From: Sphagnum magellanicum | Lineage: Eukaryota > Streptophyta > Sphagnopsida > Sphagnales > Sphagnaceae | Direction: 5' to 3' | DNA length: 64,000 bases | Assembly: GCA_021904315.1 (NCBI GenBank) | Contig: CM038916.1 | Location: 12,427,065 to 12,491,064 of the forward strand | Shown: piece by piece, positions 4,308 through 61,215 of the stretch | How positions within the stretch are numbered: position 1 is the stretch's first letter | How the letters are laid out: each line of letters begins with the position of its first letter | Program-made: the position numbers and the translations under genes | Notes under the pieces: model-generated | What the model saw: only the letters and a program-made list of their open reading frames with translations | Told to the model about the DNA's origin: nothing | Databases searched by the model: none

Positions 4308-6789
4308 CTAAAGGTCATCACTCATGAAAACTCCAAGTTGATCGACAACAAAACCTACATGTCCCAAAAACCCAACAATTTTGCCAACAGAACTTCGGAA
4401 ATGGGTGAAATTTGGTTCCTCTCCCCCACCATATGGCCCATGAACCTTTTTGAGGTTGGTATGAAACGTTATTGCTAATAGTGCTTGAATTAAAACCCCA
4501 TCTACTTTTCGATAATTTACTCCATAATATCCTTCGACTTGCATTAAGAACTCATATGGTTCAAGCAAAAACTGCAAGAGCAAAATCTCGAAATAAGTGT
4601 ATAAACAAGTGCAAGTTTGAAAGTACACATGTCAAGTGACAAATTCACATTTCGAATCAAAATTCAAATTCTTGCAAAGAAAAGAAAAGGCACACCTTCT
4701 CTCTCTTGCCATTTACTCGGCTCATATCTCCACCACCAAATATTGTTGTAGCTTTATAGCCATTGTATTCCTGTTCAACCTTGAGAGTCCAAATAAGTGG
4801 TGTTGGACCACTTTCATAGTGTATCTCAATACTTTTGATGGACATGGGGGTACCACATGCCACAAATTCGCCACCTTGGCCTCCAAAAGGTCCTTCCGTC
4901 TAAGGAATAAATGACACAATTAGAAGATGTTCAAAGCTTGTGATAAGAAGTTGAATATACAATTAAGATAATCATTCAATGTTGGTTTTGCATATCATAG
5001 TACAGGGAAGTTTCAGCACATGTCTGGACTTTGCAAACTCATAATTGATTAATTTTGAACATTTTATTTTGAAATAAATTATTCCTTGCTATTCCCAAAA
5101 ACCTTCATCCTCCTTCACAAAATTTTCTTCTTTGAGAAAAATTATTTAAAAATAATTTCAGCAATTCTCAAAAATTAGAATTTGTGCCAAAGCCACCAAG
5201 GTACCACAATATAGCTTGCACACGATATATTGTCTAGTCTATGCACTGGTGTTGAAGGACCCTACTAGGCGGGTATGACAAGGCAATACCAGCCTTGTAC
5301 CACTACTAACTTGGTGCGGACCTAATCCAGCACTGCTCTAGTTTTATACCAATTGAATACCTGGTAAATGTTTTCCATACTAGTAAAAAATTAATGTTAA
5401 GCTCCACACCATGACCAAGCCACTATATGAAAGTATAGAAAAATACCAAATACCAAGATCCGGCATGAATGTCAAAAGTCCATCCAAGACCAAAATTAGA
5501 ATTATGTCTCCTCCCTCCCTTCTATGAGGATTTTCACAAAAATGAAAACATGCCTTTTTCCAACTTAAATGTTGGAAGTTGGGTCAAAAGAGATTCCTCC
5601 AAGCCTTTGGTTCCAAAAGGTAGGTCATGTAGTGAAATCTGGTCACAGAGTTAACATCTAAACTTCCCAGTGTGAGTCTAAATGTTCACAGGTACAAAAG
5701 GCAACTATGGAATAAAAATCTGCTCAGAGTAATATTCTCTGTAGCTTTTGGTTCACTACAATTGTCCAATGACCCTCTCATCCATATATTTACACTCCAA
5801 TCTATATACAAGAAGAGGTGAAATGACGCACTCCCAAGTCACGGGGTGAAACCCACTTGAGGGTTTCACAAAGTCAAATTGCGGAAAGTTGAACTTGGTA
5901 GCACGCTCCCGGCTTCCAACTCTAGAAAGGGGTAGAAGGTCGAGTTGGGAGCCCTGGGATTAGACTAGGAAGAGGAACTAGCTTAGCTCGTGTGAATCTA
6001 CATCCAAAAACCAACCAAATCGGGTTAGTTTAGCATTCGGGACACCCTTGGGTGTTGGGACTTGCCACGGGCACTTGGACACACAAGACTCACCATGGCC
6101 CGAACTCGGGGGAAGCCACCACCTTCCCCCATATAGTATTCTCTGCGGCTGGTCGCGGAGGCTTCATCCGAATGGCACAAATTCCCGGGACTCCCGAAAT
6201 GGAGTCCCGAAATTGTCCCGGCGGGACTCCTGGAACTTTGAACCGCCATAACTCCCGATTGCAGAGTTGGATCACGACGAGGTCTAAACCAAAGTTGTAA
6301 CCCTTGTTGAGATCTTTCCAACGCCATGTCGCACACTCAAATTGGATGTCGGGAAGAGGTCGATAACCGACTTTTAGTGGTCGGGAGTCAAACTGCCAGT
6401 TTGACTCTCGGCCCTTCTTTTGCCCATAACTTGGGCTGCAAATGTCCGAATTGCTAATGCGAGGGCATTTTCGATATCTACGTTTCAAGACCTTTCCAAT
6501 GACATCAAGAACGCCTCAATGCGAGGTGTTTTGCCGCTTTTTGTCGAGCTCTGAACCTTCGGGAGTCCCGGAAGACTCCTAACCTCCAACTTTTCCAAGT
6601 GTTGGGCTTCACCCCCACACTTGGCCAAAGTGGGGTTGCGACATGAAAACTCAGGAGGCAACATATTAAGGGGATCACTTTAGGACACAAGATCACCATA
6701 GTGCAACTACAGATCACCAATTCACATTTTTTCAAAGGAAGTTGGAACACACCTTAATTCCTTGAAATCCTTCATTTGGGGGCAGCTTA
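4308..6789 (-). pseudogene. Jacalin-type lectin fragment, 5'-truncated copy of the kinase-lectin gene
   Basis: Three exon pieces match the gene at 56,954-61,215: 6,753-6,789 (37 of the 56 bases of exon 2), 4,696-4,899 (204 bp) and 4,308-4,571 (264 bp including the stop). Splice sites are kept: TTCCTTAG before the 204-bp exon, GTGTGC after it, CTCTTGCAG before the last exon. Both larger exons are fully open and phase-compatible. Together they encode a whole jacalin beta-prism: EGPFGGQGG near the start, VEGYYG in the middle and IVGFLGHVGFVVDQLGVF at the end, including the GxxxD-like sugar-binding loop. The kinase exon and the 5' end are absent and a solo LTR sits in intron 2. I call it a pseudogene because no start or promoter is evident, but an unrecognised new first exon could make it a stand-alone lectin. 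Confidence 0.8.
5824..6643 (-). mobile_element. Solo LTR of the Ty3/gypsy family, with 5-bp TSD
   Basis: An 820-bp LTR in reverse orientation, running from TGACGCACTCCC to GGGGTTGCGACA (TGTCGCAACC...TCA on the minus strand). It is flanked by the perfect 5-bp duplication TGAAA (5,819-5,823 and 6,644-6,648). The paralogous site near 58,469 reads GAGGTGAAAACTCAGG with a single TGAAA, so it is the empty site. No internal sequence remains, so this is the product of LTR-LTR recombination. It lies in what was intron 2 of the truncated lectin copy. Confidence 0.95.
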
Positions 6790-8419
6790 CTTTTGAAATA
6801 AATAGGCTAATGAAGTCAGATAGATTATGCTATGTCTTATAAGCTTTGGAGCTTCATACTACGCATTCCTCCTAAACGAGAAAAGTTAGGGATGGGTGTT
6901 CCTTCGCCCTTGGTACTGCTACAGGTCTCACAACCGGGGAGGCCTGCACAATGGGTTATTAGCTTAGTGGTCGAGTGTGCCCTTGATAATTGTGTCGTTG
7001 TGCTTGGGCTGTGAAGACTCTCAGCCACATAGATAGTTCAATGTGCTCATCATCGCTTGACCCGAAAATGTTGATTATTCAAGTTTTTAAAAATACATAT
7101 AGTTTTGTTTTGGTCCTCTCTTTAATTCTAGCAACTCATCTTACGGTCTCGCTAATTGTTTTCAGAGGAACCGACCTAAGGCCTTCTCTCAAGACGAGGA
7201 CGATTATCCCTGTCACTTAATAGTACCTAACAAGTTTATGTCGATCCTCCAACTAAGCTTCGCCAAGGTAGGGTAAAAGGTTAACGGGTAATACATTGTC
7301 TCCTACCTTTACCTTACCATTACCCTTACCTAATTCGATCACGCCTACCTTTACCTTTCCCTACCCCTTCAACCAGGTAATTACCCAGTAAAATGTTCGA
7401 ATCGTATTCCGTGGGACATTTTACTCAAAGATCGACTTGAGAGAACAAGACTCACTGGTGTACGTTGTGTGGGAGGGAGAAAAAGACAAAACACTTAATC
7501 GTTGTTAGAACAACGCTCGGTGTCGCAAAACACCATGTCCAGATTTGCAACAAATTCACTCAAGGTTTGTTGTTATTGTTGTTACACTTGTCGGGTTCAT
7601 GTAGTTCATCTTTTGTTGTGGAGGACATTCAAGAAGTTTGTTAGAGAAGTAAAGTGTTTTGCGGCCAGATTCTAGAACCCATTTTGCTAATATTATAATT
7701 GGTTGTTTTCTTTACCCCTTGCAGAGACGGAGATCCAAGAGCTGATGCAAATCATGTCTTCTTGTGGTACCAGGCCTTTCATCTTTTGGGGTGCAACAGG
7801 TTGTTGGACTAAGTGGGTTTTTTTAGCTGCCAGCTAGAGCTACAGAAAGGGATCATTGTGAAGGATTACTAAACATTGTAATAACAAGAGATTTTGATGG
7901 GCCAAGATGTAAATTGAGGAGGAGCTCTAATCTCGTATAGAGTTCACATGGATCAAACAAACATTGCCAGCTGAAAGATCTTAGAGCCAAATGTTGTGGG
8001 TGGGTTGAGGGGGATCTGATGGCACTAGAGGAAAAATTCACGAGATCACAAATTGCCTGAATTCTGTAGGAAGAGTGATTATACGAGAGGAGGAAGAAAA
8101 GAAGGCATGAATGTACAGTTGATCTCTACATTTGTAACAATTCCTTGAGCTTCTTCTCTATTATGTTGCAACCTTCAACAATATTTTTTCTTGCCAATCA
8201 AGCAGCCATGCTGCTTGATTGCTTTGCCTTTTTGTGCAATTTAATTCCTTTGCTCCTTAACCTCAAATACACGGCCAAGCATGTGAGAAAGTTGGAAATT
8301 TGACTGTGATTCATTCAATTCATGGCATGGTCTCACAACCTTGCTGTTCAACTCTTTTCAACAATCTGAACATTTGATGGCTTTTCCCTCTCTCTTCAGT
8401 ACTTTCATCTTCAGTTCTC
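6790..8419. other. Intergenic region between lectin copy and hAT relic
   Basis: No gene recognised. At 6,955-6,975 the phrase TTAGCTTAGTGGTCGAG resembles a tRNA-type A box, with only a weak B-box-like match about 80 bp on, so a SINE remnant is possible. At 7,262-7,402 short motifs GGTAA/TTACC recur many times in both orientations, as in the subterminal regions of some hAT transposons. At 8,195-8,221 there is a perfect 12-bp stem with a CAT loop. Some of this may be the 3' flank of the adjacent hAT element. Confidence 0.4.
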
Positions 8420-10361
8420 AAAGTTCCTAGCACTCAAAGACCAGGTCGGCGAATTGGTTGTGGATCATTTGAACGACACCATCGTCAAGGATTTCCTCAT
8501 CCCAGTCCTCCTACTCCTCCTCAAGCTCCTCGACGACCAAATCCATGTTGTTGGCGTTGTCTTGTCTGAGGGTAGCCGTTGCCTGCGTTCGATTTGCCGG
8601 CACTTTGAGGATACCGACATTCATCCACGAACGTAGGCACATTGTCATGATGAACACTAATGACAACAACGACTGCTGGGTGCATGTGAATTTGCGATCG
8701 GCGGCGCTGTTGACCCGCTCTGATGGTGTCGACGTTGCCAGCGTTCCGTGGTAGTCCATGACCCTCTGGTAATGGCACGGCAGCGATTCCTTCTGGGTCG
8801 ACCACCATGACAAGATGTCGATGAACCCCAATGATTAGACAACGCCGATCAACAAATATTAGTCGACCTCGTCGCCATTGCCACTCTATGTCATGCTGCG
8901 GCTGAAACATTGCAGCGAAAAGCGAGTTGCTGGCCGCTTCCTATTCGATGCTTCGGTGAGAGCTCACCTCGGCCGAGTAGTGGTGCTGTAGCGAATTGCA
9001 AACGAGATCAATGATGAGCTTCAGTTCCATCGGGTCGGTCAGCTTGGGGATCTGTGAGTTCAGGTACACCGCAATGATCGCCGATTCCTGCACTAGCTTG
9101 CTCTTGTACTTCTCAAGCTTCGCCTTCATTCCAACTGTCGTTAGCTTGTCGTTGATCTCTTACAGTTGCTGTTTACTATCATCGCAATGCTTCAGGAGCA
9201 GAGAGATAGACATCGGCACCAAGTCGAGCGTCGGCTTGTGATTGACCGGGAGGCTCTCCATGACCTAGCAAGGCGTGGGAAGGAACGTCAACACGCCGTC
9301 GATGGCATGCCATTCGAAGTCAGGGAGAGCGCCGTGGCCAAAGTCGACCGCGTACTGGTCCATGATGCTATCCAAAACGACGCGATTGCCAGTTGGCGCA
9401 CATCTCGTGAATCGAGTTCCAGCGCGTGGGCGAGTCCTAGTGCGTCAGCTCCTTGCTAGCAAACCTGGCTGTCGCGGCTTTGACGCAATACTGCTGCCGC
9501 ATCACTTTGCTGCCGCGGAATTTGATCAGCGCATCCCGCAACTGCTCGGTGGGCTCCTTAACGTCAACACCTTGAACACAATGAGCTAGACGAAGTGGTC
9601 GGCACACCGGACATGGTTGACCTTGCGCATCTACTCGTAGCCGATGAAGGTATTGAACAGCTAGAAGAGTCGCGCGATAGTAACCATTACGTCTAACCCA
9701 TTGTCGTTGACGATGTTCAGCAGGCGCGTCACAACATCCCGACCCAAGCGCTTCAGGTATTCGAACAAGGCAGCCCCGACGCGCTTGCTAACGCCAGTCC
9801 CGCACTTGACGTCAAGGATCGTCAAGAAAATGTTCTTATTGGTCAGAAAAGTGACATCGACCCAATGCGCGGTGACAACGTAGAAGCCCTTCAAGTTTCG
9901 ATTTGACCAACTGTCCAACATCAAGGAGATGGCGACGTCCAGGCTGCAGAGAAATGCCGCCAGTAATGGCTCCAAGATGCAGTACAGCTCGACGATCCGT
10001 CGTAGGATTGTTCGAGTCGACGGCGGCTCGTATCCGTTTGTCAGTGACACAACGAACTTCTTGAAACGAATGCCGCCAGTCACGCGGAGGGTGACGCCAC
10101 CTTCGACGACGTAATCCACGATGACATTCTCATACTTGCACAGAACGGGCTCCGGAAACATAGGCTTGCTGCTAAACGTCGATTGGAATATGACCTTGCC
10201 AGACAGGGCGGACAATGTGGTGTCGTTGCAGGTGATGCCGTGCGCGCTCTTCATGTGGGCTTTCCAGCCTAACGCATTGGTCGATCCGGAATACCACTTG
10301 CGACACACCGTGCACTAGCGCTTTCCGCAATGCTTGCCGGAATCGTCATCCTACCAATGCT
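8420..10361 (-). pseudogene. hAT-superfamily transposase, decayed
   Basis: On the minus strand the longest open piece (9,661-10,308, 215 codons) starts with a BED-type zinc finger remnant (CRKW...LGWKAHMKSAHG; the first Cys pair is interrupted by a stop). It continues with FKKFVVSL, SLMLDSWSNRNLKGFYVVTAHWVD and an ILDVKCGTGVSKRV segment, which is the hAT catalytic-core signature. After frameshifts there is a helical piece at 8,941-9,129 (MKAKLEKYKSKLVQESAIIA). The C-terminal dimerisation block lies at 8,511-8,831: IDILSWW, then HGTLATSTPSERVNSAA, then LRSWMNVGIL. The order is that of full-length hAT transposases. At least three frame changes and several stops make it inactive. The 5' end is cut by an LTR at about 10,362. 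GC content is clearly higher than in neighbouring spacers. Confidence 0.85.
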
Positions 10362-11799: not shown

Positions 11800-12620
11800 T
11801 GTCGCAACCCCACTTTGGCCAAGTGTGGGGGTGAAGCCCAACACTTGGAAAAGTTGGAGGTTAAGAGTCTTCTGGGACTCTTGAATGTTTAGAGCTCGAC
11901 AGCAAGGCCCAAAACACCTCCGATTGTAAGGTTCTTGGTGTCATTGCAAAAGGTCTTGAAACATAGATATCGAAAATGCCCTCGCATTGGCAATTTGGGC
12001 ATCCGCAGCCCAAGTTATGAGCAAAAGAAGGGTCGGGAGTGAAACTGGCAGTTTGACTCTCGACCACTAAAAGTCGGTTATTGACCTCTTCCTAATGTCC
12101 GATTTGAGTGTGCGACATGGCGCTGAAAAGATCTCGACGAGGGCTACAACTTTGGTTTAGACTTCGTTGCGATCCAACTCTGCAGTCGGGAGTTATGGCA
12201 GTTCAAAGTTCTGGGAGTCCCGCCGGGACAATTTCGGGACTCCATTTCGGGAGTCTCAGGAATTTGTGCCATTCGGATGTAGCCTCCGCGACCAGCCGCT
12301 GAGAATACTATATGGGGGAAGGTGGTGGCTTCCCCCGAGTCCGGGCCGTGGTGAGTCTTGTGTGTCCAAGTGCCCGTGGCAAGTCCCAACACCAAAGGGT
12401 GTCCCGAATGCTAAACTAACCTCGCGTGGTTGGTTTTTGGATGCAAATTCACACAAGTTAAGCTAGTCCCTCTTCCTAGTCTAATCCTGGGGCTCCCAAC
12501 TCGACCCTCTACCCCTTTTTAGAGTTGGAAGCCGGGAGCGTGCTACCAAGTTCAACTTTCCGCAACTTGACTTTGTGAAACCCTCCAGTGGGTTTCACCC
12601 CGTGACTTGGGAGCGCGTCA
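11800..12620 (+). mobile_element. Ty3/gypsy 5' LTR
   Basis: An 821-bp LTR from TGTCGCAACCCC to GGGAGCGCGTCA, followed after two bases by a primer-binding site. It therefore serves as the 5' LTR of the gag-pol region. It contains a TATA-like ACTATATGG (12,307-12,315) followed by a perfect 8-bp stem with a 7-nt loop (12,314-12,336), which is preserved in the other copies. Immediately upstream lies 3' internal sequence from another copy, not a target duplication. Confidence 0.92.
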
Positions 12621-12622
12621 CG

Positions 12623-12634
12623 TGGTATCAGAGC
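12623..12634 (+). other. Primer-binding site (initiator Met tRNA type)
   Basis: TGGTATCAGAGC lies two bases after the 5' LTR. It matches the complement of the 3' end of plant initiator methionine tRNA, the usual primer for reverse transcription of plant gypsy elements. It fixes the orientation and the 5' LTR boundary. Confidence 0.9.
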
Positions 12635-12663
12635 AAGTGGTGAAGCTCACTTCTTGGGTTGGG

Positions 12664-15600
12664 ATGGCACCCAAGAAGAATCGCAAGCAACCGCAAGGCT
12701 CCATGTTGGAGGAGCCCGCCGAGGACCAAGTAGCCCTGTTGGAATCCATTGGTGAGGAGGAACCAAGGCTCCGGGAGGACCAAGATGAGCTCAAAAGTGA
12801 GGAGGAGCCAAGGAGCTCGGTCCTATTCACCCAAGAGCAACTTGAAGTACTTCTCAAGATGGGGAGGCCCGACTTCGGTGAGTTGGTGGCGGCCCTCAAA
12901 ACTGGAGCCGCCAAGGGTGAAAGGTTTCAACCGGCCAAGCTCAGGAACTTCGATGGTGCCCGCGACCGCAAGGTTGTGGATGCTTGGCTTGCGGAGATGG
13001 ACGACTATTTGCATGTCGCCAAGGTGGGCCGGCATTCCGCCGTGGAGCTTGCCCAATCCTACTTAAAAGGCTATGCCGCCACATGGTGGCGGACGGTGAG
13101 ACAAGAGGAGGGCAAGAACCATGGCTATACGTGGGAGTTTTTCAAGGATCACATTGAGGCGGAATTCACCCCGAGAAACTCCGACTACATTTCTAGGTGC
13201 AAACTTCGTGACCTTGTGAATGCCACAAATGAAAACTTGAGGCAATATGTGAGGGCTTACTCTGAACTCATGCTCGAGGTCCGACACATGCACGAGATGG
13301 ACCGTGTGTGCCAATTCGTGATGGGGCTTCCAACTTGGGCTAAGCGACAGCTTGAGGAGAGTTGGCCCGCCTCATTATCCAAGGCCATCACGAAAGTGGA
13401 GAACTTCTCGGATGTGGGGCGGAGTGACAAATCCGGGTTCAAGAAGGACAACAAGTTCCTTCACAAGAAACCAAAGCATGAGGGGGAATGGAACCGGGGG
13501 CAAGGTAGCCCGACCAAGGAAAAACCCAAACAATTCCAAGGCTCGGGGTTCAAACCAAAAGGAAGCTTTATGAGAAAAGGGGCTCCCTCCAAGGGGAGCC
13601 AACAAAAGGAAGATTTTGGAGCAAAGCCCAAGGGGGCATGCTTCAATTGCAACGAAGTGGGGCACTACTCCAAAGATTGCCCCAAGTCCAAATCGGGTGT
13701 TGGGAGCTCCAAGGTACTTGCTCTCAATGCCACTTTAGCCCAAAAGGAATGCAACCGACTTATCTTCTTCAAAGGGAAGATTTCTAAGCGGGAAATTTTA
13801 TCTCCTTTGGACACATGGGCTTCTCACAACTTCATAACTCGAGAAAGCGTCGAAAGGATGGAGCTCCACTTGGAGGAGCTCAAGGCACCCATTGAGGTGC
13901 ACTTCGCGGATGGGGTTCCCCATCCAACTACGTTACAAACGAAAGAGGTGCCTCTCCAATTGGGGAATTGGAGAGGAAAAGTGGACTTGTTAGTGTTCAC
14001 CTTGGGTGGAATGGATTGTGTTTTGGGAATGGAGTTCATCACTCGAAACAATGTGCTCATAGAAGGGCACAATAGGTTAGTTAGAATCCCATTTAAAAGT
14101 GGGATTGTGCGAGTCAAGGCACATGAGTTGCCTTGTGTGGGTGGCCCAACCATCCACTTCATGTTAGGAAAAGCTTGGGAAAGAGAATGTGTAGGAGGTT
14201 TTGGCATGGTGTGTATCATGCGGGTGCTAGACGAATATGAGCCCAAGGAAGCCACCAAGTTGGTGACTTCTCCCAAGTGCATAAAGCAAGTTTTGGAAGA
14301 GTTCCCGGATGTGATGCCCGAAGAGTGGCCCGAAGACTTACCCCCGAGAAGACGAGTTGATCATGCGATTGAAGTGATGCCAGGAGTAGCAACTCCCGCC
14401 AAGGCCCCATATAGAATGAGCCATGAGGAGTTGAAAGAGCTTAAGGTTCAACTCGAAGAACTCCTCACAAAAGAGTATATCAAACCAAGTAAGTCACCAA
14501 ATGGGGCACCCGTCCTTTTTTTTCACAAGAAGGATGGGACCTTGAGGATGTGTGTTGATTATAGAGCACTCAACAAGGTAATGGCGAAAAATCGGTATCC
14601 TTTACCTCGCATCGATGATCTATTTGATCGTTTCTCGGGAGCTAAGGTTTTTAGTAAAATTGATCTACGTTCGGGGTATTACCAAATAAGGATCGCGTAA
14701 GGGGACGAAGAAAAGACCGCTTGTTGCACAAGGTATGGCTCATATGAGTTCTTGGTGATGCCCTTTGGGCTCACCAATGCACCCGCCACATTTTGTACCC
14801 TCATGAATGACATTTTCCGCGAATGGCTTGATGATTTTGTGGTCGTCTACATAGATGACATTTTGATTTATAGTAGCTCCCTAGAGGAGCATGCGGAGCA
14901 CCTTCGCAAGGTGTTCCAAAGGCTACGAGAAAACAAGTTGTATGCCAAGCTCCAGAAGTGCGAATTTGCGGTGACGAAAGTGGACTTCGTTGGGCATAGG
15001 ATAACTCAAGAAGGTTTGATGATGGATGATCACAAGGTCAAGGCAATTTTGGATTGGGAGCCGCCTAAATCGGTTCCCGCCTTGAGATCCTTTTTGGGAT
15101 TGGCCTCCTACTATCGCAAGTTCATCAAGAACTTTGCGAAGATAGCGGCCCCTTTGACAAACCTGTTGAAGAAATCCGCTGTCACCTATGATTGGGATGA
15201 AGCATGTGACGAAGCCTTTGAAGCATTGAAGGGCATTTTGGTGAAGGCGCCGGTGTTGAAGTTGCCTGACTTTGACAAGGACTTTGAAATCCATTCCGAC
15301 GCCTCTGACTTTGCAATTGGGGGTGTCATAGTGCAAGATGGAAGACCGGTGGCCTTTGAAAGCAAGAAGTTGAATGAGACGGAAAGAAGGTGGCCAACTC
15401 ACGAGAAGGAAATGTGAGCGGTCATACATTGCCTCAAGACTTGGGGCCATTACATAAGTTCCAAAGATGTGGTGGTGTGGACCGACAATGTGACCTTGAA
15501 GTATTTTTCCACTCAACCCAAGTTGTCATCAAAACAAGTAAGATGGCAAGACACATTGGCCTTGTTCAATGTGGACATCCGACACAAGTCGGGAAAGGAG

Positions 15601-52197: not shown

Positions 52198-52662
52198 ATT
52201 TGATTATAGTGATATCGTCCCAGTCAAATCGAGAGGCTGGATACAATCTGTGCAAAATGCAATACCCCATCCTGGCTTCTATGGGATCAGAGTTCACCAT
52301 TTGGCTGGAAGTTTTTCTCCAGTCCCTGGAGATCACACAGAGAAACTGTGGCAGGAGTTCTTTAGGGATCCTTCGCAATGTTGGGATCATAGATCAGAGA
52401 AGGTAAGTGAACATCAAACCTGTCAGAGTTCACATGTCAATGGAGCCATACCTCTTGTTGGTGTCAATCTTTTTTCTCTCTGTTGGTTGTTGCTATCCTG
52501 CCTTGGTCTAAACTGGGCAGAATTTCTTTTCAGGTCCTTTGCACTGGTGGAGTAGTAGTTGTAGGCTGGAGAAGGTAGGTCAATGCAATATGCTGATGGA
52601 GAAGGTCAGTGCACATTTCGCTGTTCTTATGATACCATTTATTCCCGGGATGTTGAGAATAC

Positions 52663-54336
52663 ATGGCTGATCAGCTTGATCTGGATTGCTGGTTGTCAAC
52701 AAATGAAAGGTATCCATATTTCAAACACAAGAACACATGGGAAGCACTTTGGGTTGAGGACGGACAAAACTCACCATGGGTGGCAGCAGAGATAGTTGCA
52801 AAGGCACCAGGTACAGTGCAATTCAACATATTTGCATGCAATCAGAAGCTTACAAAACATGTGAAGGATGGGCAACTTGAGAGGGTGATGCAGCTTTTCC
52901 AACAAATGCGACAACAAGTGAGTCCTAAAAAAATCACTTTTATTCAAGTGATTAAGGTATGTGCTCCTTTACGAACACTTGAAGATGGCAGGCTTGTTCA
53001 TAAACAGCTCATTCAAACTGGTTCTGAGTCTGATGTCTTTGTGGGGAGTAGGTTAGTGGACATGTATGCAAAATGTGGGAGCATTGAGGATGTTTGGAGA
53101 GTGTTCAACAAGATGCCATCTCAAAATGTGGTCACTTGGAGTACCATGATATTGGGACATGTGGAATGTGGGCAAGGGCAGAAGGCACTTGGACTCTTTC
53201 AACAAATGCAACATGAAGGTGTGCAACCAGATTCTGTTACTTTTGTGGGGGTGCTGAAAGCATGTGCCAGCATGGTTGCAATTGAAGAGGGGTAGGTGTG
53301 TTCATCAGGACATCAGTCAAAGCGGTTTGGAATTTGATGTCTTTGTGGGGAGTAGCTTAGTCAACATGTATGCAAAGTGTGGGAGCATGGAGGATGCTTG
53401 GAGAGTGTTCAACAAGATGCCATCTCAAACTGTGGTCACTTGGAATGCCATACTTGGAGGATGTGCCATGAATGGGCATGGTAAGGAAGCTCTTAAATAT
53501 TTTGAACAGATGTGCGCAGAAGGTGTACAGCCAGATGATACCACTTTTATTTGTCTTCTGTCAGCTTGTCACCATGCAGGTTTGGTTGATGAAGGCATGC
53601 ACTGTTATGCTTCAATGGTCACTTACTATATGATTTCTGCAAAGTTGGAACATTACACCTGCATGGTCGACCTTCTTGGCCATGCTGGCCATCTACAGGA
53701 GGTAGAGAATATGGTCATGGCAATGCCCTGGAAACCACATGTGGCTGCATGGATGGCTTTACTTGGTGCTTGCAGAATTCATGATAAGGTGGAGATGGCT
53801 GAACGTGTTGCCAGAGGAATTCTTGAAATGGAACCTGACAATGCTGCTGATTATGGGCTGCCGTCAAACATCTATGCTGCTGCTGGCAACTGGCATCTTT
53901 GTGAGAATGTTAAATGTTAGAGAGAGGAAAAAGGTGGGATGAAATAGCCGGGTCGCACCTGGATTGAAGTGAACAATGAGGTGCATATGATTGTAGTAAA
54001 GGATCAAGGCCACTGCCAGATTATTGAATTCATGCAGATCTGCAGAGGTTGTCAGGGCTCATGCAGGATGTGGGGTATGTGCCTTGTACAAGATTCATTC
54101 TGCATGTTGTGGAAGAAGAAGAATTGGTGTTTCAGCTGTGCCACCATAGTGAGAAACTGGCTGTTGCACTTGGGCTCATCAACACAGCTCCTAGTAGTCC
54201 TCTCCGAATAAAAAAATCTGCAGGTTTTTTAAGATTGCCACACTTCCAAGAAGTTCACCTCAAAAATATTGAGGGATGAGCAAATCACTTTGATCACTTT
54301 GAAGATGGTATTTGTTAGTGCATGGACTACTGGTAA
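52663..54336 (+). pseudogene. PPR protein of the E/DYW class, pseudogene
   Basis: Pentatricopeptide repeat proteins bind organellar RNA, and the DYW domain is a cytidine deaminase for C-to-U editing. From MADQLDLD at 52,663, PPR repeats follow: FVGSRLVDMYAKCGSIEDVW, VFNKMPSQNVVTWSTMILGH and QPDSVTFVGVLKACA. A one-base G insertion near 53,288-53,292 shifts the frame; repeats continue from RCVHQDISQSG to VAAWMALLGACRIH. Two in-frame TAG codons follow (53,918 and near 53,945), then the E region (TWIEVNNEVH), another frameshift near 54,030, and the DYW domain with HSEKLAVALG (the HxE zinc/active site). The CxDCH motif is damaged (Cys to Phe, Glu to stop). The terminal DYW tripeptide and TAA are at 54,325-54,336, with a stop for the Ser of CSC. 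No clear organelle signal upstream. Confidence 0.92.
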
Positions 54337-56050: not shown

Positions 56051-58613
56051 TATAAGTGGTTATACTTTCTTGTGTAGTTTTTTGCATGGAGATCTAATCA
56101 TTGGATTTGTTAATTACAACCATTTTGTTATGGGAGCAAAGACAACAGGTCATGTTTTTGATTTTGACATTGTTCAATAAAAATTTGAGAAACAGAAACG
56201 CCATTTGGAAAATAGGAAAACCAACAAAGATTGAGACCATTGAGTGGAAAACAGATCCTTAAGTATAATTACCATAATACCTATTCAATTTGAGTGACAA
56301 TTATATTAATTTATGAAATCCTAAAAATTCTAAAAACTACCAGCCCAAACACCAGAAGTTGTGGGATTAAGTGGAGTCCTTGTTACTATAACCAATTATT
56401 GTGATGAGAGAAAATCTTTTAGTTTTTCTCTTTTGATGCGATCTTCCCATGGACATTAACTACCATGATCAATCATCATTGTTGAAAATTCTTATTTCAA
56501 CATCATATGGGAACAAATTTTTCAAAATTTACATAGGATTTTATTGCTAAATTCAGTCTTGAAAAATAAAGTACTTATATGATGGCCTGTTTAATTTTTT
56601 CCATATAACACCTCCAAAGCAAGATGATCCGCTATTAAAGGACACTTATGCCCCTAGTTTTCTATCCTCATGCCGTGGTAATGGGGGGCAACATATCAGC
56701 ATCACAAGTAACTCTGAGTTGTAGTCACATGTCCTTTGATGTGTATAATCAAAATTCTCCTAGGCTTTTTCACATTCAGGGATCCATTGAAAAAGCAAGT
56801 GAATGGTATACTTCAGAAGGCAATATGCAATATTTCCTAAAATACTAGTCTTTGGATATAATTTCAAATTTTAACCTAATATTATATAACTAACTTACCA
56901 AGGTCATCATCAGTGGAACCAATATCCAAAAAAAATCTGAAAATGCTTCTCCCTCAAAGATCAGGACTCATGAAAACTCCGAGTGAATGAACAACATAAC
57001 TTGACTTTCCCAAAAACCCAATGATTTTGCCAACAGAACTTTGGAAATGGGTGAAATTTGGTTCCTCTCCCCCACCATATGGCCCATGAACCTTTTTGAG
57101 GTTGGTATGAAACGTTATCGCTGATAGTGCTCGAATTAAAACCCCATTTACAATTTGATAATGTAAAGGATAATATCCTTCGACTTGCGTTAAGAACTCA
57201 GATGGGTCAAGCAAAAACTGCAATAGCAAAATCTCGAAATAAGTGTATAAACAAGTGCAAGTTTGAAAGTACACATGTCAAGTGACAAATTCACATTTCG
57301 AATCAAAATTCCAATTCTTGCAAAGAAAAGACTGAAATCAGAGGCACACCTTCTCTCTCTTGCCATTTACTGCTCTCATATCTCCACCAAATACTGTTGT
57401 AGCTTTATAGCCATCGTATTCCTGTTCAACCTTGATAGTCCAAATAAGTGGTGTTGGACCACTTTGATAGTGTATCTCAATACTTCTGATGGACATGGTG
57501 GTACCACAAACTGCGACTCGGCCACCTCCCGGGCCTCCAAAAGGTCCTTCCCACTAAGGAATAAACAACACAATTAGAAGACATCCAAAGCTTGTGATAA
57601 GAAGTTAAATATACAATTAAGATAATCATTCAATGTTGGTTTTGCATATCATAGTACAGGGAAGTTTCAGCACATGTCTGGACTCTGCAAACTCATAATT
57701 GATTAAATTTGAACATTCTATTTTGAAACAAATTATTCCTCGCTATTCCCAAAAAACCTTCATCCTCCTTCACAAAATTTTCTTCTTTGAGAAAAAATAT
57801 TAAAAATAATTTCAGCAATTCTCAAAAATTAGAATTTGTGCCAAAGCCACCAAGGTACCACAATATAGCTTGCACACAGTATATTGTCTAGTCTATGCAC
57901 TGGTGTTGAAGGACCCTACTGGGCTGGTATGACGAGGCAATACCAGCCTTGTACCACTACTAACTTGGTGCGGACCTAATCTAGCATTGCTCTAGTTTTA
58001 TACCAATTGATTACCTGGTATATGTTTTCCATACTAGTAAAAAATTAGTGTTAAGCTCCACACCATGACACTATATGAAAGTATAAAAAAATACCAAATA
58101 CCAAGATCAGGCATGAATGTCAAAAGTCCATGCAGGACCAAAACTAGAATTATGTCTCCTCCCTCCCTTCTATGAGGATTTTCACAAAAATGAAAACATG
58201 CCTTTTTTCAACTTAAATGTTGGAAGTTGGGTCAAAAGAGATTCCTCCAAGCCTTTGGTTCCAAAAAGGCAGCTCATGTAGTGAAATCTGGTCACAGATT
58301 TAACATCTAAACTTCCCAGTGTGAGTCTAAATGTTCACAGGTACAAAAGGCAGCTATGGAATAGAAATCTGCTAAGAGTAATATTCTCTGTAGCTTTTGG
58401 TTCACTACAATTGTCCAATGACCCTCTGATCCATATATTTACACTCCAATCTTTATAAAGGAAGAGGTGAAAACTCAGGAGGCAACATATTAAGGGGATC
58501 ACTTTAGGACACAAGATCACCATAGTGCAACTGCAGATCACCGATTCACATTTTTTCAAAGGAAGTCAGAACACACCTTAATTCCTTGAAATCCTTCATT
58601 CGGGGGCAGCTTA
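56051..58613. repeat. Segmental duplication, right copy
   Basis: The partner of 3,409-6,789, in direct orientation. It covers the 3' flank, exons 4 and 3, introns 3 and 2 and 37 bp of exon 2 of the kinase-lectin gene. It lacks the LTR found at 5,824-6,643 and so records the pre-insertion state. The duplication stops inside exon 2, and everything upstream (the kinase) is unique to this locus within the window. Confidence 0.92.
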
Positions 58614-61215
58614 GCCAGGGTTGATTTATCATCTGGAAAGTAAAACATCAGCAAATAAACCAAACATAGAATTGAATTAGACACACAAACTCGAATTAGC
58701 AATGAATTTACAGCTCTATAATATACATTTGCCTACTATGTCCACATGGTAACAAAAAGAAAAAAAATGGTCAACGAATTATTCCAAACTAAAGCTCAAG
58801 TTTGCATCCATTGAGGGCTCAGGAAAATTCCCCTTCAACCAGCTCCCGATAGGGGATACATATAAGTATGTAGTATCGTAACACCTATTTTGCTCCAAAC
58901 TTATAGTAGACATTTATACAAAACTTTATATTTTGAATTTCTGCAGCATATTTTCACAAGCAGTCGAGATACCAAATGACAAGAACCCCATGAACAAGGT
59001 TGTAACTTAGCCATTAATAGGTTGGACGATTTCCTCAAAACCGCTAACTCATCATGAGATCTTACTAAAGAACAAGCAAAAAAATTCTTTCGTATGTGGA
59101 CAGTGCCTTGGCCCTGACCAAGTAAAATTGCTCCCTTGATAGAGGATGACACCTTAGGCCAAAGGTGCATCTTCTTGTTTCAAATGAACCATAACTGAAT
59201 GTTTGTAAAAGTAGAATTCTACTGCTTCTTTATGTTAGGCCATGCTTCAGGAATTGCCTCCCACTTCACACATAGGCCTCATTCCCAAAATGACCTCATT
59301 CACAGTTCTTACTGTACATCACCAATTCAAGCAGTAAGGTAAACCTGAAGGCAATGAGCTTTATCTTAATAAGAGCCTGTGAGGTGGAGCTTGATTTTGA
59401 TAAAGACTATGGCCAAGGGATTCACCTACATGTGATGGCCCATCAGATGTAGGTGTTTCAAAAAACAAAATGCCCATCCAACAAAAAATTATGGTGAGGA
59501 ACATGCCTTCCAATTCCAGTAGAAAAATCCTATGAAGGTGTTTACATGTGCAAAATATAACCCTCCTAAACTATTTAGGTTGGTAAAGTTACAATACCTG
59601 TAAGAAGTAAACCTTTGATGTACCTCAGCTCTGTGCAAATGTCAGGGAAACTAGGTCGCAAGAGTGGGTCCGCATGCCAACATCGTTTGATAAGCCCAGA
59701 CAAGCGAGCAGGGCAGTCCAGTGGCAGATTTGGTCTCTTCCCCTGTCGCACAAGGGCTTTGAATTTCATGGCTGTCACATTCACTCCATCAATCTGAACT
59801 TGGGAAGGGTTCCCAGTCACCACTGTGAAGCAAAGCATACCAAAGCTATAAACATCTGTTTTCATAGGGTGAAATCTCTTGGGTATCTCATCCTTGGGGT
59901 GAAGCTCATACACCTCGGGTGCCATATACATTGTGGTACCAATTGGTATGGTCTGGTGTGAATATGCAGTACTCTGATTCTTGACTTTTGAGGTGCCAAA
60001 ATCACAGATTTTAGCAATCCAAACAGGATTTGACAGTGGACATGAAGTGGAGTTCTTAAAGTCAGGATGATGATCAACAGACAGTTCCTGCACTTTCTTG
60101 ACAAGAATGTTCTGTGGCTTGAGATCACGGTGCGCCATCCCCATGTTGTGAAGGTACTGCATCCCTTCTGCAACTTGAAGCATCAGATCCACAGCTTGCA
60201 GGATACATGAGATGTGGTGTCTGTTCAACAGCATGTCGCAGAGGCTCATATCCATAAGCTCCATGATATATGAGCACTCTGTATCAGGTACTTCAGTACA
60301 ACAAAGAAGACGCATAATGTGAGGGTGGTTCAGACCTACAAGAGCTTCAATCTCTTGCTTGATGTTTTTTGTACATCCTCGCTTTGGTCGCTTCATCGCA
60401 TATGTCTCTCCACGCCAAACCACTTTGGATACTTCCCCAAAACCACCTGAACCTAGATGACGGTCACCTTCGGATTGCAGATCCTTCTGACTTATCAACA
60501 AAGCAAGAGGCCATTTACTCAACATGTTTCTATCAGGTGGAGGCAACCCTTCATAGTACTCCTTTTGAGCTGCTTTAGATTGTGCTTGGAAGTCAATCTT
60601 CTTTAGCAATTGTGCTGCCAGACAAGGTGCACTCACTTGCTTTCCATCCCAACATTCTCCACTGCAAGTATGGTTTTCCTTCAAGTCCCTCAAAAGAACT
60701 TTGAGATCCTTCTGATCTCTTTCTGCAGCTATTGTTAGAGCATATCTATCCCTTGGACTCAGCATCCCACGACAATCTTCTGGCTTCAAAGCCTGATTGT
60801 CTTGTCCTGCATGCTTGAGAAGGATACTACACAATATTGAGCAGTACCATTGCAGGTCGTACAGAATTCCACTCGCAGTTTCCTTCAAGTCTCCATGTTG
60901 CCTGAGCGCTGATTCCATCCATTCATTGCAGAAGCAGTCTTTGAAGAATGTCTCATAAGCTCTGGTTAGGACGTGGACAAGTTCTTGGGTTGCTTGACCC
61001 ACATCTGGAGAGCTTGTTTCTTCATCGGGTAGCTCACATTGCAACAATTCTAGTGTTCCCTGAGTCTCTAACAGCTTGTTGCACACGAGCATACACTGTT
61101 GCCCACTGATTAGCAAACCATTCGACTTGTTATCTCCTAAAGAAAGTAGCTTGTATCGTTCTGTTATTTTCTTGCAGAGATCTAGTCCAAGGGTGATCTG
61201 TGTAGCTGCTGCCAT
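56954..61215 (-). CDS. Protein kinase with C-terminal jacalin-type lectin domain (four exons)
   Basis: Predicted exons: 61,215-59,598, 58,632-58,577, 57,553-57,350 and 57,217-56,954, giving 713 residues and a stop. Junctions are GT-AG (ACAG|GTATTG, TTTCCAG|ATGAT, AAG|GTGTGT, TCCTTAG|TGG, AAG|GTGTGC, ATTGCAG|TTT) and the phases agree. Residues 1 to about 245 are mostly helical and Cys-rich with no signal peptide or membrane segment. They recall the helical leader of some plant TKL or MLKL-like kinases, but this is uncertain. The kinase domain spans about 250-535: LGSGGFGEV at 254-262, Lys275, Glu288, HRD at 362-364, DFG at 405-407, APE at 432-434, DVYSFG at 454-459 and Arg520. All catalytic residues are present, so it should be active. 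The jacalin domain spans about 559-713: EGPFGG, GYY, GPYGGG and a final loop GKSSYVVH (696-703) where many jacalins have Asp last. It is probably a cytoplasmic carbohydrate-sensing kinase; the role is inferred. Confidence 0.88.

What the first reader, a model, noticed from the sequence alone, without database searches (positions are those of the whole stretch)
56954..61215. Single gene fusing an active-looking kinase to a jacalin-type lectin
Splice sites and phases joined by eye give one 713-residue protein with a complete kinase catalytic set and a full jacalin beta-prism at the C-terminus, without signal peptide or membrane span. Jacalin domains bind mannose- or galactose-type sugars. Coupling one directly to a soluble kinase suggests an intracellular sugar- or glycan-sensing switch, plausibly in defence. 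Lectin-kinase fusions of this soluble type are uncommon compared with membrane lectin receptor kinases.
Basis: partly seen in the sequence, partly recalled or inferred. Interest (0 to 1): 0.75.

Follow-up and report, generated by a model that had tools for sequence, protein, structure and literature searches.

The report
Moss cell-death-type kinase fused to lectin
A peat-moss gene joins a helical domain like those that trigger cell death, a kinase and a lectin in one protein; it belongs to a large, fast-changing family also found in a clubmoss, so it looks like an overlooked kind of immune sensor rather than a one-off fusion.

Summary
The gene is real. Four exons (56954-61215, minus strand) with GT-AG introns give 713 residues, identical to annotated Sphagnum magellanicum protein CY35_10G073800. 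Pfam confirms kinase and jacalin. So this is most likely a HeLo-kinase-jacalin protein. It is not rare: at least 38 of 57 jacalin loci found in this genome lie just downstream of HeLo-kinase sequence, some of it broken. Variation is lowest in HeLo and highest in the lectin's ligand loops. Here the sugar-binding Asp of GXXXD is His, while 24 of 26 jacalin exons read keep Asp, so mannose binding by this copy is doubtful. Best reading: a soluble MLKL-type defence protein whose lectin is its fast-evolving recognition part; function is inferred. No held paper found joins plant MLKL to jacalin; jacalin-kinases are known.

The parts
59598..61215 (-). Exon 1: HeLo-type helical region and brace (residues 1-234) plus whole kinase domain (251-530), ending ...LRYIKGLLLT, phase 1
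60514..61215 (-). HeLo/DUF1221-like four-helix region and brace, residues 1-234
   Evidence: tested alone it gave no match
59599..60513 (-). Protein kinase region, residues 235-539, with K275, E288, HRD 362-364, N369, DFG 405-407
58577..58632 (-). Exon 2: short linker exon (56 bases)
57350..57553 (-). Exon 3: first half of jacalin domain (GG loop), residues 559-626
56954..57217 (-). Exon 4: second half of jacalin domain, residues 627-713 and stop; hypervariable stretch 641-656 and altered GXXXD loop (699-703 = SYVVH)
4308..6791 (-). Truncated second copy: linker exon and both jacalin exons, but no HeLo or kinase exon found in the window

Best explanation
CY35_10G073800 encodes a soluble plant MLKL-type protein with three parts: an N-terminal HeLo four-helix domain with brace (the likely executor), a kinase with all catalytic residues (the likely switch), and a C-terminal jacalin domain (the likely recognition part). 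In the proposed mechanism the HeLo domain is held inactive until the lectin engages a ligand (a microbial glycan, a glycosylated or other protein, or an effector); the kinase and brace then rearrange, the protein oligomerises, and HeLo drives cell death or defence signalling. Domain content and gene family are shown here; ligand, oligomerisation, membrane action and immunity are inferred from plant MLKLs. In this copy the sugar-binding Asp is lost, so its ligand is probably not a simple mannose-type sugar. My confidence: MLKL-type architecture about 0.85; defence role about 0.6; lectin as the sensing part about 0.45.
For: Architecture and identity. MLKL kinship: the two best PDB sequence relatives are 6lba and 6ka4, alone and by profile; 6ka4 is AtMLKL3 by its entry title, 6lba another Arabidopsis MLKL (recalled). 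The family profile also aligns in order with the N-terminus of 6lba (17.7 bits, i-Evalue 0.0096) and, weakly, of 6ka4 (4.8 bits). At E<=10, Pfam MLKL_N is hit in 5 of 52 family members (best 6.2e-4) and DUF1221 in 3 of 52 (best 3e-4). The full-length model's top Foldseek hit is the AtMLKL3 tetramer (E 6.8e-16, 577 columns). Clubmoss P0196, with DUF1221 (27.0 bits, cut-off 25), kinase and jacalin, is 36% identical to the target from residue 11 to 712. Recognition-type evolution: pN/pS in 9 intact copies is HeLo 0.40, kinase 0.67, jacalin 0.80; in 5 chr10 copies the two ligand loops give 1.59 (codon bootstrap 1.07-2.66) against 0.63 (0.42-1.00) for the rest of jacalin. Entropy peaks in the 16-residue window from 644 and at site 700. 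The copies form a tandem cluster with many decayed members. Precedents: Pm13, an MLKL resistance protein with an active-looking kinase (PMC10951266, passages and one section); OsJacLK1, a rice jacalin-kinase acting in blast resistance (PMC13165441).
Against: The target alone hits neither DUF1221 nor MLKL_N in Pfam, and the N-terminal region alone finds nothing in PDB by sequence (0 hits at E<=10) or by fold (best E 3.3). VIA-align listed only kinase matches, spanning mostly 224-543. The jacalin part of the model is of low confidence. AtMLKLs are described as pseudokinases (PMC10951266), unlike this protein. Cell death, ligand and expression are untested. High pN/pS also fits relaxed constraint; in the 9-copy set the loops are near 1 (1.06; 0.78-1.52); within the chr10 set jacalin (0.86) and kinase (0.83) hardly differ and the HeLo interval (0.31-1.10) overlaps both. 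Loop bounds were set after I had seen the alignment, so the loop test is not blind.
Confidence: 0.55

Rival explanations
1. One reading: a soluble sugar-sensing kinase switch in which this jacalin binds a mannose- or galactose-type glycan and regulates the kinase, with no executor domain.
For: Jacalin domain complete; rice OsJacLK1 binds mannose and chitin (PMC13165441); 24 of 26 jacalin exons read keep the GXXXD Asp.
Against: Leaves the HeLo homology unexplained. In this copy 699-703 is SYVVH, with Asp changed to His; the equivalent Asp is needed for mannose binding in ZG16p (PMC4059138).
Confidence: 0.12
2. The lectin is a targeting module: it moves an MLKL-type executor to sites of attack, membranes or wall material rather than sensing a specific trigger, as proposed for OsJAC1.
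For: [quoted passage not shown]
Against: Variation concentrates in the ligand loops, which suits changing ligands better than a fixed address.
Confidence: 0.2
3. A decaying copy: the His change and high pN/pS reflect relaxed constraint in a tandem cluster where most copies are already broken.
For: 7 of 12 jacalin-bearing copies at C10 12.27-12.76 Mb are interrupted or truncated; of 26 exons read only this one has His at the Asp position.
Against: All four exons and splice sites are intact and kinase motifs are intact; HeLo pN/pS is 0.40 (0.30-0.53) in the 9-copy set, though 0.56 (0.31-1.10) within chr10.
Confidence: 0.15
4. The kinase exon is mostly expressed without the lectin, as a HeLo-kinase protein; the fusion is a minor isoform.
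For: 6 of 16 named close relatives lack PF01419. P0011 uses another 3' exon although both jacalin exons at its locus L014 are open, and P0016 ends in a tail that looks like read-through after the linker exon.
Against: The annotation of this very gene joins all four exons, as do 9 more of those 16; the layout is conserved in distant paralogues.
Confidence: 0.1

Closest known systems
Plant MLKL proteins (AtMLKL type, DUF1221-kinase)
   Same: N-terminal HeLo-type domain, brace, C-terminal kinase fold; best sequence and fold match
   Different: Kinase here has HRD and DFG intact, while AtMLKLs are described as pseudokinases; a jacalin domain is added at the C-terminus
Pm13 (Aegilops MLKL, wheat powdery mildew resistance; PMC10951266)
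   Same: MLKL_NTD plus kinase with all catalytic residues; called a kinase fusion protein
   Different: No lectin; by the paper its kinase is of the DLSV subfamily and it falls in the MLKL_NTD-kinase cluster, apart from the DUF1221-kinases
Jacalin lectin kinases such as OsJacLK1 (PMC13165441), also reported for Physcomitrium and columbine
   Same: Kinase followed by C-terminal jacalin; defence role reported for the rice protein
   Different: OsJacLK1 has two jacalin domains, HKN in place of HRD and a GXXXD motif; MLKL and HeLo do not occur in its text. Whether the Physcomitrium protein has a HeLo domain could not be checked
NLR-jacalin integrated-domain receptors, chiefly of grasses (PMC4759884)
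   Same: Jacalin fused to an intracellular immune protein
   Different: Here the partner is an MLKL-type kinase, not an NB-ARC receptor
Lectin receptor-like kinases
   Same: Lectin and kinase in one protein
   Different: Those are membrane receptors with other lectin types; no membrane span here by hydropathy

Membership tests
Plant MLKL (HeLo/DUF1221-kinase) | N-terminal HeLo/DUF1221/MLKL_N domain, by sequence | tested here: met
   Through the family: profile hit to 6lba N-terminus, i-E 0.0096; MLKL_N 5 of 52 and DUF1221 3 of 52 members at E<=10; full-length homologue P0196 passes the DUF1221 cut-off. The target alone gives no such hit
Plant MLKL (HeLo/DUF1221-kinase) | N-terminal HeLo fold, by structure | tested here: inconclusive
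   Full model: top Foldseek hit AtMLKL3, 577 columns. N-terminal region modelled alone: no match at E<=0.001, best 3.3
Plant MLKL (HeLo/DUF1221-kinase) | C-terminal kinase or kinase-like domain closest to MLKL kinases | tested here: met
   6lba and 6ka4 rank first by sequence among PDB chains, single and profile searches
Plant MLKL (HeLo/DUF1221-kinase) | Oligomerisation and cell-death activity | not testable with these tools
   Needs expression
Jacalin-related lectins | PF01419 domain | tested here: met
   E 2.1e-19, 70.8 bits against a cut-off of 22, profile positions 2-135 of 136
Jacalin-related lectins, mannose-binding | GXXXD motif with sugar-binding Asp | tested here: not met
   699-703 is SYVVH in this copy; Asp in 24 of 26 exons read. 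So it is not filed as a mannose-binding member
Jacalin lectin kinase (JacLK) | Kinase domain followed by C-terminal jacalin in one protein | tested here: met
Lectin receptor-like kinase | Membrane span | tested here: not met
   Maximum 19-residue hydropathy 1.30; no dedicated predictor
Lectin receptor-like kinase | Signal peptide | not tested
   No predictor on hand

The most novel reading that the evidence does not exclude
An old land-plant class of lectin-guided MLKLs: intracellular cell-death executors whose jacalin domain serves as a diversifying recognition module, giving a peat moss a repertoire of dozens of lectin-armed necroptosis-like sensors. Copies such as this one, having lost the sugar Asp, would read proteins or effectors instead of sugars, like an integrated decoy.
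Probability: 0.3. Interest if true: 0.85.

Novelty: new variant of a known kind. Interest (0 to 1): 0.6.

Why it matters
Plant MLKLs are thought to execute cell death, but what triggers them is, to my knowledge, open. A natural fusion of an MLKL-type protein to a lectin, in a moss and a clubmoss, with variation focused on the lectin's ligand loops, offers a direct handle: find the ligand of the lectin and the trigger may follow. It also suggests that immune-type domain fusion (jacalin here; a hydrolase-like domain, BAH or a second kinase in relatives) happened on MLKL-type kinases and not only on NLRs.

Tried and rejected
N-terminal region searched alone against PDB by sequence: 0 hits at E<=10. 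Folded alone and searched: nothing at E<=0.001; NRG1.1 CC-R at rank 24 (E 6.6) is within noise. VIA-align of the full model listed kinases only; no HeLo family was listed, which excludes nothing.

One gain of jacalin with no loss was rejected: on the 42-row tree the label needs 5 changes, at least 4 forced by starred branches (root at the midpoint only). Caveats: six 'no jacalin' rows (P0115, P0116, P0120, P0135, P0155, P0205) may only be unfinished models, and P0166 is labelled 'no jacalin' because it has another domain there. Conserved exon ends and phases in two deep clades favour one old fusion followed by losses and swaps over repeated gain, but do not prove it.

Positive selection is not claimed: in the 9-copy set the loops are near 1, the loop bounds were chosen after I had seen the alignment, and neither gene conversion (target and L015: HeLo dS 0.048, jacalin dS 0.185) nor relaxation was excluded.

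Rows dropped: searches used 9 of the 14 copies (L012, L013, L017, L018 interrupted; L024 short as I cut it). One search used 20 sequences; P0031 (model skips exon 3), P0013 (half a jacalin), L024 and the broken copies except L012 were left out. One search used 42 of 232 proteins. One search used 67 of the 80 jacalin rows (13 rows matching only the first half dropped). One search scored 80 of 691 candidates and 100 candidates, so counts are lower bounds. Some of the 72 kinase loci match over the kinase only. One search listed 120 of 516 hits. Jacalin homologues outside Sphagnum were sought by shared words only; one search found 14 proteins, all Sphagnum, and the clubmoss proteins came only, so absence elsewhere is not shown.

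Literature: the only paper holding both 'jacalin' and 'MLKL' is on ulcerative colitis. (MLKL with moss or bryophyte) gave no plant MLKL-jacalin title; their hits were not all opened. All 10 searches are used; supplements and closed papers were not seen.
Full report
WHAT IS THERE. On the minus strand, four exons (61215-59598, 58632-58577, 57553-57350, 57217-56954) with GT-AG introns give a 713-residue protein with one terminal stop. It is letter for letter the annotated Sphagnum magellanicum protein CY35_10G073800 (P0001, 100% over 100%), from which I take the species; the assembly itself is unnamed. The window is 12427065-12491064 of contig C10 of a 439-Mb assembly. Pfam gives kinase and jacalin far above cut-off. 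The catalytic residues K275, E288, D364, N369 and D405 are in place. There is no strongly hydrophobic span.

Residues 1-234 are not filler. The best relatives in PDB by sequence are 6lba and 6ka4; the entry title of 6ka4 is the AtMLKL3 tetramer, and 6lba as another Arabidopsis MLKL is recalled. The family profile also matches the N-terminus of 6lba in order (17.7 bits, i-Evalue 0.0096). At E<=10, MLKL_N is hit in 5 of 52 and DUF1221 in 3 of 52 family members. The AlphaFold2 model (mean pLDDT 70.4) shows long helices before the kinase, and its first Foldseek hit is AtMLKL3 over 577 columns (E 6.8e-16, TM normalised by target 0.62). The clubmoss Diphasiastrum complanatum (Lycopodiopsida) has a 680-residue protein, P0196, with DUF1221 above cut-off, kinase and jacalin, 36% identical to ours from residue 11 to 712. 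Against this: the region alone gave no hit by sequence or fold, and the target alone gave no DUF1221 hit. I judge HeLo homology about 85% likely.

A LARGE FAMILY. Jacalin hits in the genome reduce to 57 loci and hits of exon 1 to 72 loci (some over the kinase only); 36 pairs lie on the same strand with the jacalin 1.1-3.2 kb downstream. By my own arithmetic about 0.03 such pairs are expected by chance. Two more (L029 on C3, L031 on C13) show HeLo, kinase and jacalin pieces in order but are not in the capped list, so at least 38 of 57; some of these are broken, and L017 keeps only the end of HeLo. The other 36 exon-1 loci have no listed jacalin within 6 kb downstream, and one search lists none at all on C5, C9, C17 or C19, where many of them lie. 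Around this gene, 12 jacalin copies lie within 0.5 Mb of C10: 5 show no stop or frameshift in the exons as I cut them (target, L010, L011, L014, L015) and 7 are interrupted or truncated, including the second copy in the window at 4308-6791. Named proteins with PF01419 in this clade come from S. magellanicum, fallax, jensenii, troendelagicum, tenellum and compactum.

HISTORY. Target, L015, L030 (C6, 39% identical in exon 1) and L022 share exon ends and phases: the kinase exon ends at LRYIKGLLLT in phase 1, then a short linker exon, then a jacalin split in phase 0. The tree of HeLo-kinase regions puts fused genes in three deep groups (an L030-type group, the clubmoss pair, and the target clade), with 15 jacalin-less genes beside the target clade (midpoint root). 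One relative grouped with five fused genes, P0166, has a hydrolase-like domain in the lectin's place (DUF676, 21.0 bits, cut-off 20.3). P0040, a second model of the S. fallax gene that also gives P0016, carries a BAH domain (34.1 bits, cut-off 30.8), and P0028 and P0034 have two kinase domains (two HeLo-type stretches in P0028 read by eye). The C-terminal slot therefore looks exchangeable.

WHERE IT VARIES. Among 9 intact own-genome copies pN/pS is 0.40 (HeLo and brace), 0.67 (kinase) and 0.80 (jacalin). Among 5 chr10 copies these are 0.56, 0.83 and 0.86 with overlapping intervals; the two ligand loops reach 1.59 (1.07-2.66) against 0.63 (0.42-1.00) for the rest of jacalin. In the 9-copy set the loops are 1.06 (0.78-1.52). 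The bootstrap resamples codons only, and I set the loop bounds after seeing the alignment. Of 20 jacalin domains, the most variable 16-residue window starts at 644 (mean 1.66 bits; positions outside the three loops 0.65), and site 700, inside the GXXXD loop, has 2.81 bits. That jacalin sugar sites are built from a GG loop, a recognition loop and a binding loop with GXXXD is from PMC4059138 (passages); PMC7804308 (passages) places the recognition loop in the third Greek key around residues 83-84 of banana lectin. That 641-656 is this loop rests on similar position along the domain, and is inferred.

THIS COPY'S SUGAR SITE. Residues 699-703 read SYVVH. The last position is Asp in 24 of the 26 jacalin exons I read, broken and unfused ones included; it is His here and Asn in L028, and Asn also in P0170 of S. 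fallax by eye. In ZG16p mutation of this Asp abolishes mannose binding. Paralogues with Asp, not this copy, are the better candidates for sugar binding.

HOW IT MOST LIKELY WORKS. Shown: domain order, intact kinase motifs, family size, where variation falls. Inferred: lectin engagement releases a HeLo-kinase switch that leads to cell death or defence. [quoted passage not shown] on jacalin fused to grass NLRs (PMC4759884, passages); and on the rice jacalin-kinase OsJacLK1, which affects blast resistance (PMC13165441, abstract, passages, one section). MLKLs were already counted as NLR-associated proteins in a survey that included bryophytes (PMC11218826, passages).

KNOWN OR NEW. Jacalin-kinases are known (6.9% of monocot jacalin proteins have a kinase-like domain, PMC5536079; Physcomitrium), as is a burst of jacalin duplications in Sphagnum fallax (PMC6362431, passages and one section). 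The combination of MLKL-type HeLo, kinase and jacalin was not found in the held library (search listings; around it). I rate it a new variant of a known kind.

Noticed in passing
window 12571-15417 (+): Long open frames that read by eye as gag-pol of a Ty3/gypsy-type LTR element, in a GC-rich stretch; no database search was made.
   Followed up: no
window 9661-10314 (-): 217-residue frame that by eye resembles a BED-finger/hAT-type transposase fragment.
   Followed up: no
window 52657-53920 (+): Two overlapping frames with pentatricopeptide-repeat protein sequence, apparently one gene broken by a frameshift or an intron (by eye).
   Followed up: no
P0166 (CY35_10G006100); P0040 (S. fallax): HeLo-kinase relative with a hydrolase-like C-terminus (DUF676, above cut-off) in place of jacalin; another model carries a BAH domain with only part of the kinase.
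   Followed up: partly
C17:17.83-17.88 Mb; P0028, P0034: Tandem proteins with two kinase domains and, in P0028, two HeLo-type stretches; open frames of 1056, 1199 and 1223 residues on C17.
   Followed up: partly
C15:14.29-14.84 and 18.16 Mb (L001-L005, L007, L008): Five similar loci with several jacalin hits each and no exon-1 match listed within 6 kb.
   Followed up: no
target versus L015 (chr10): HeLo dS 0.048 but jacalin dS 0.185 in the same gene pair: suggests gene conversion or exchange between copies.
   Followed up: partly
P0011 at L014; P0012, P0015, P0016: Annotated models that end without the lectin although, at L014, both jacalin exons are open: possible kinase-only isoforms.
   Followed up: partly
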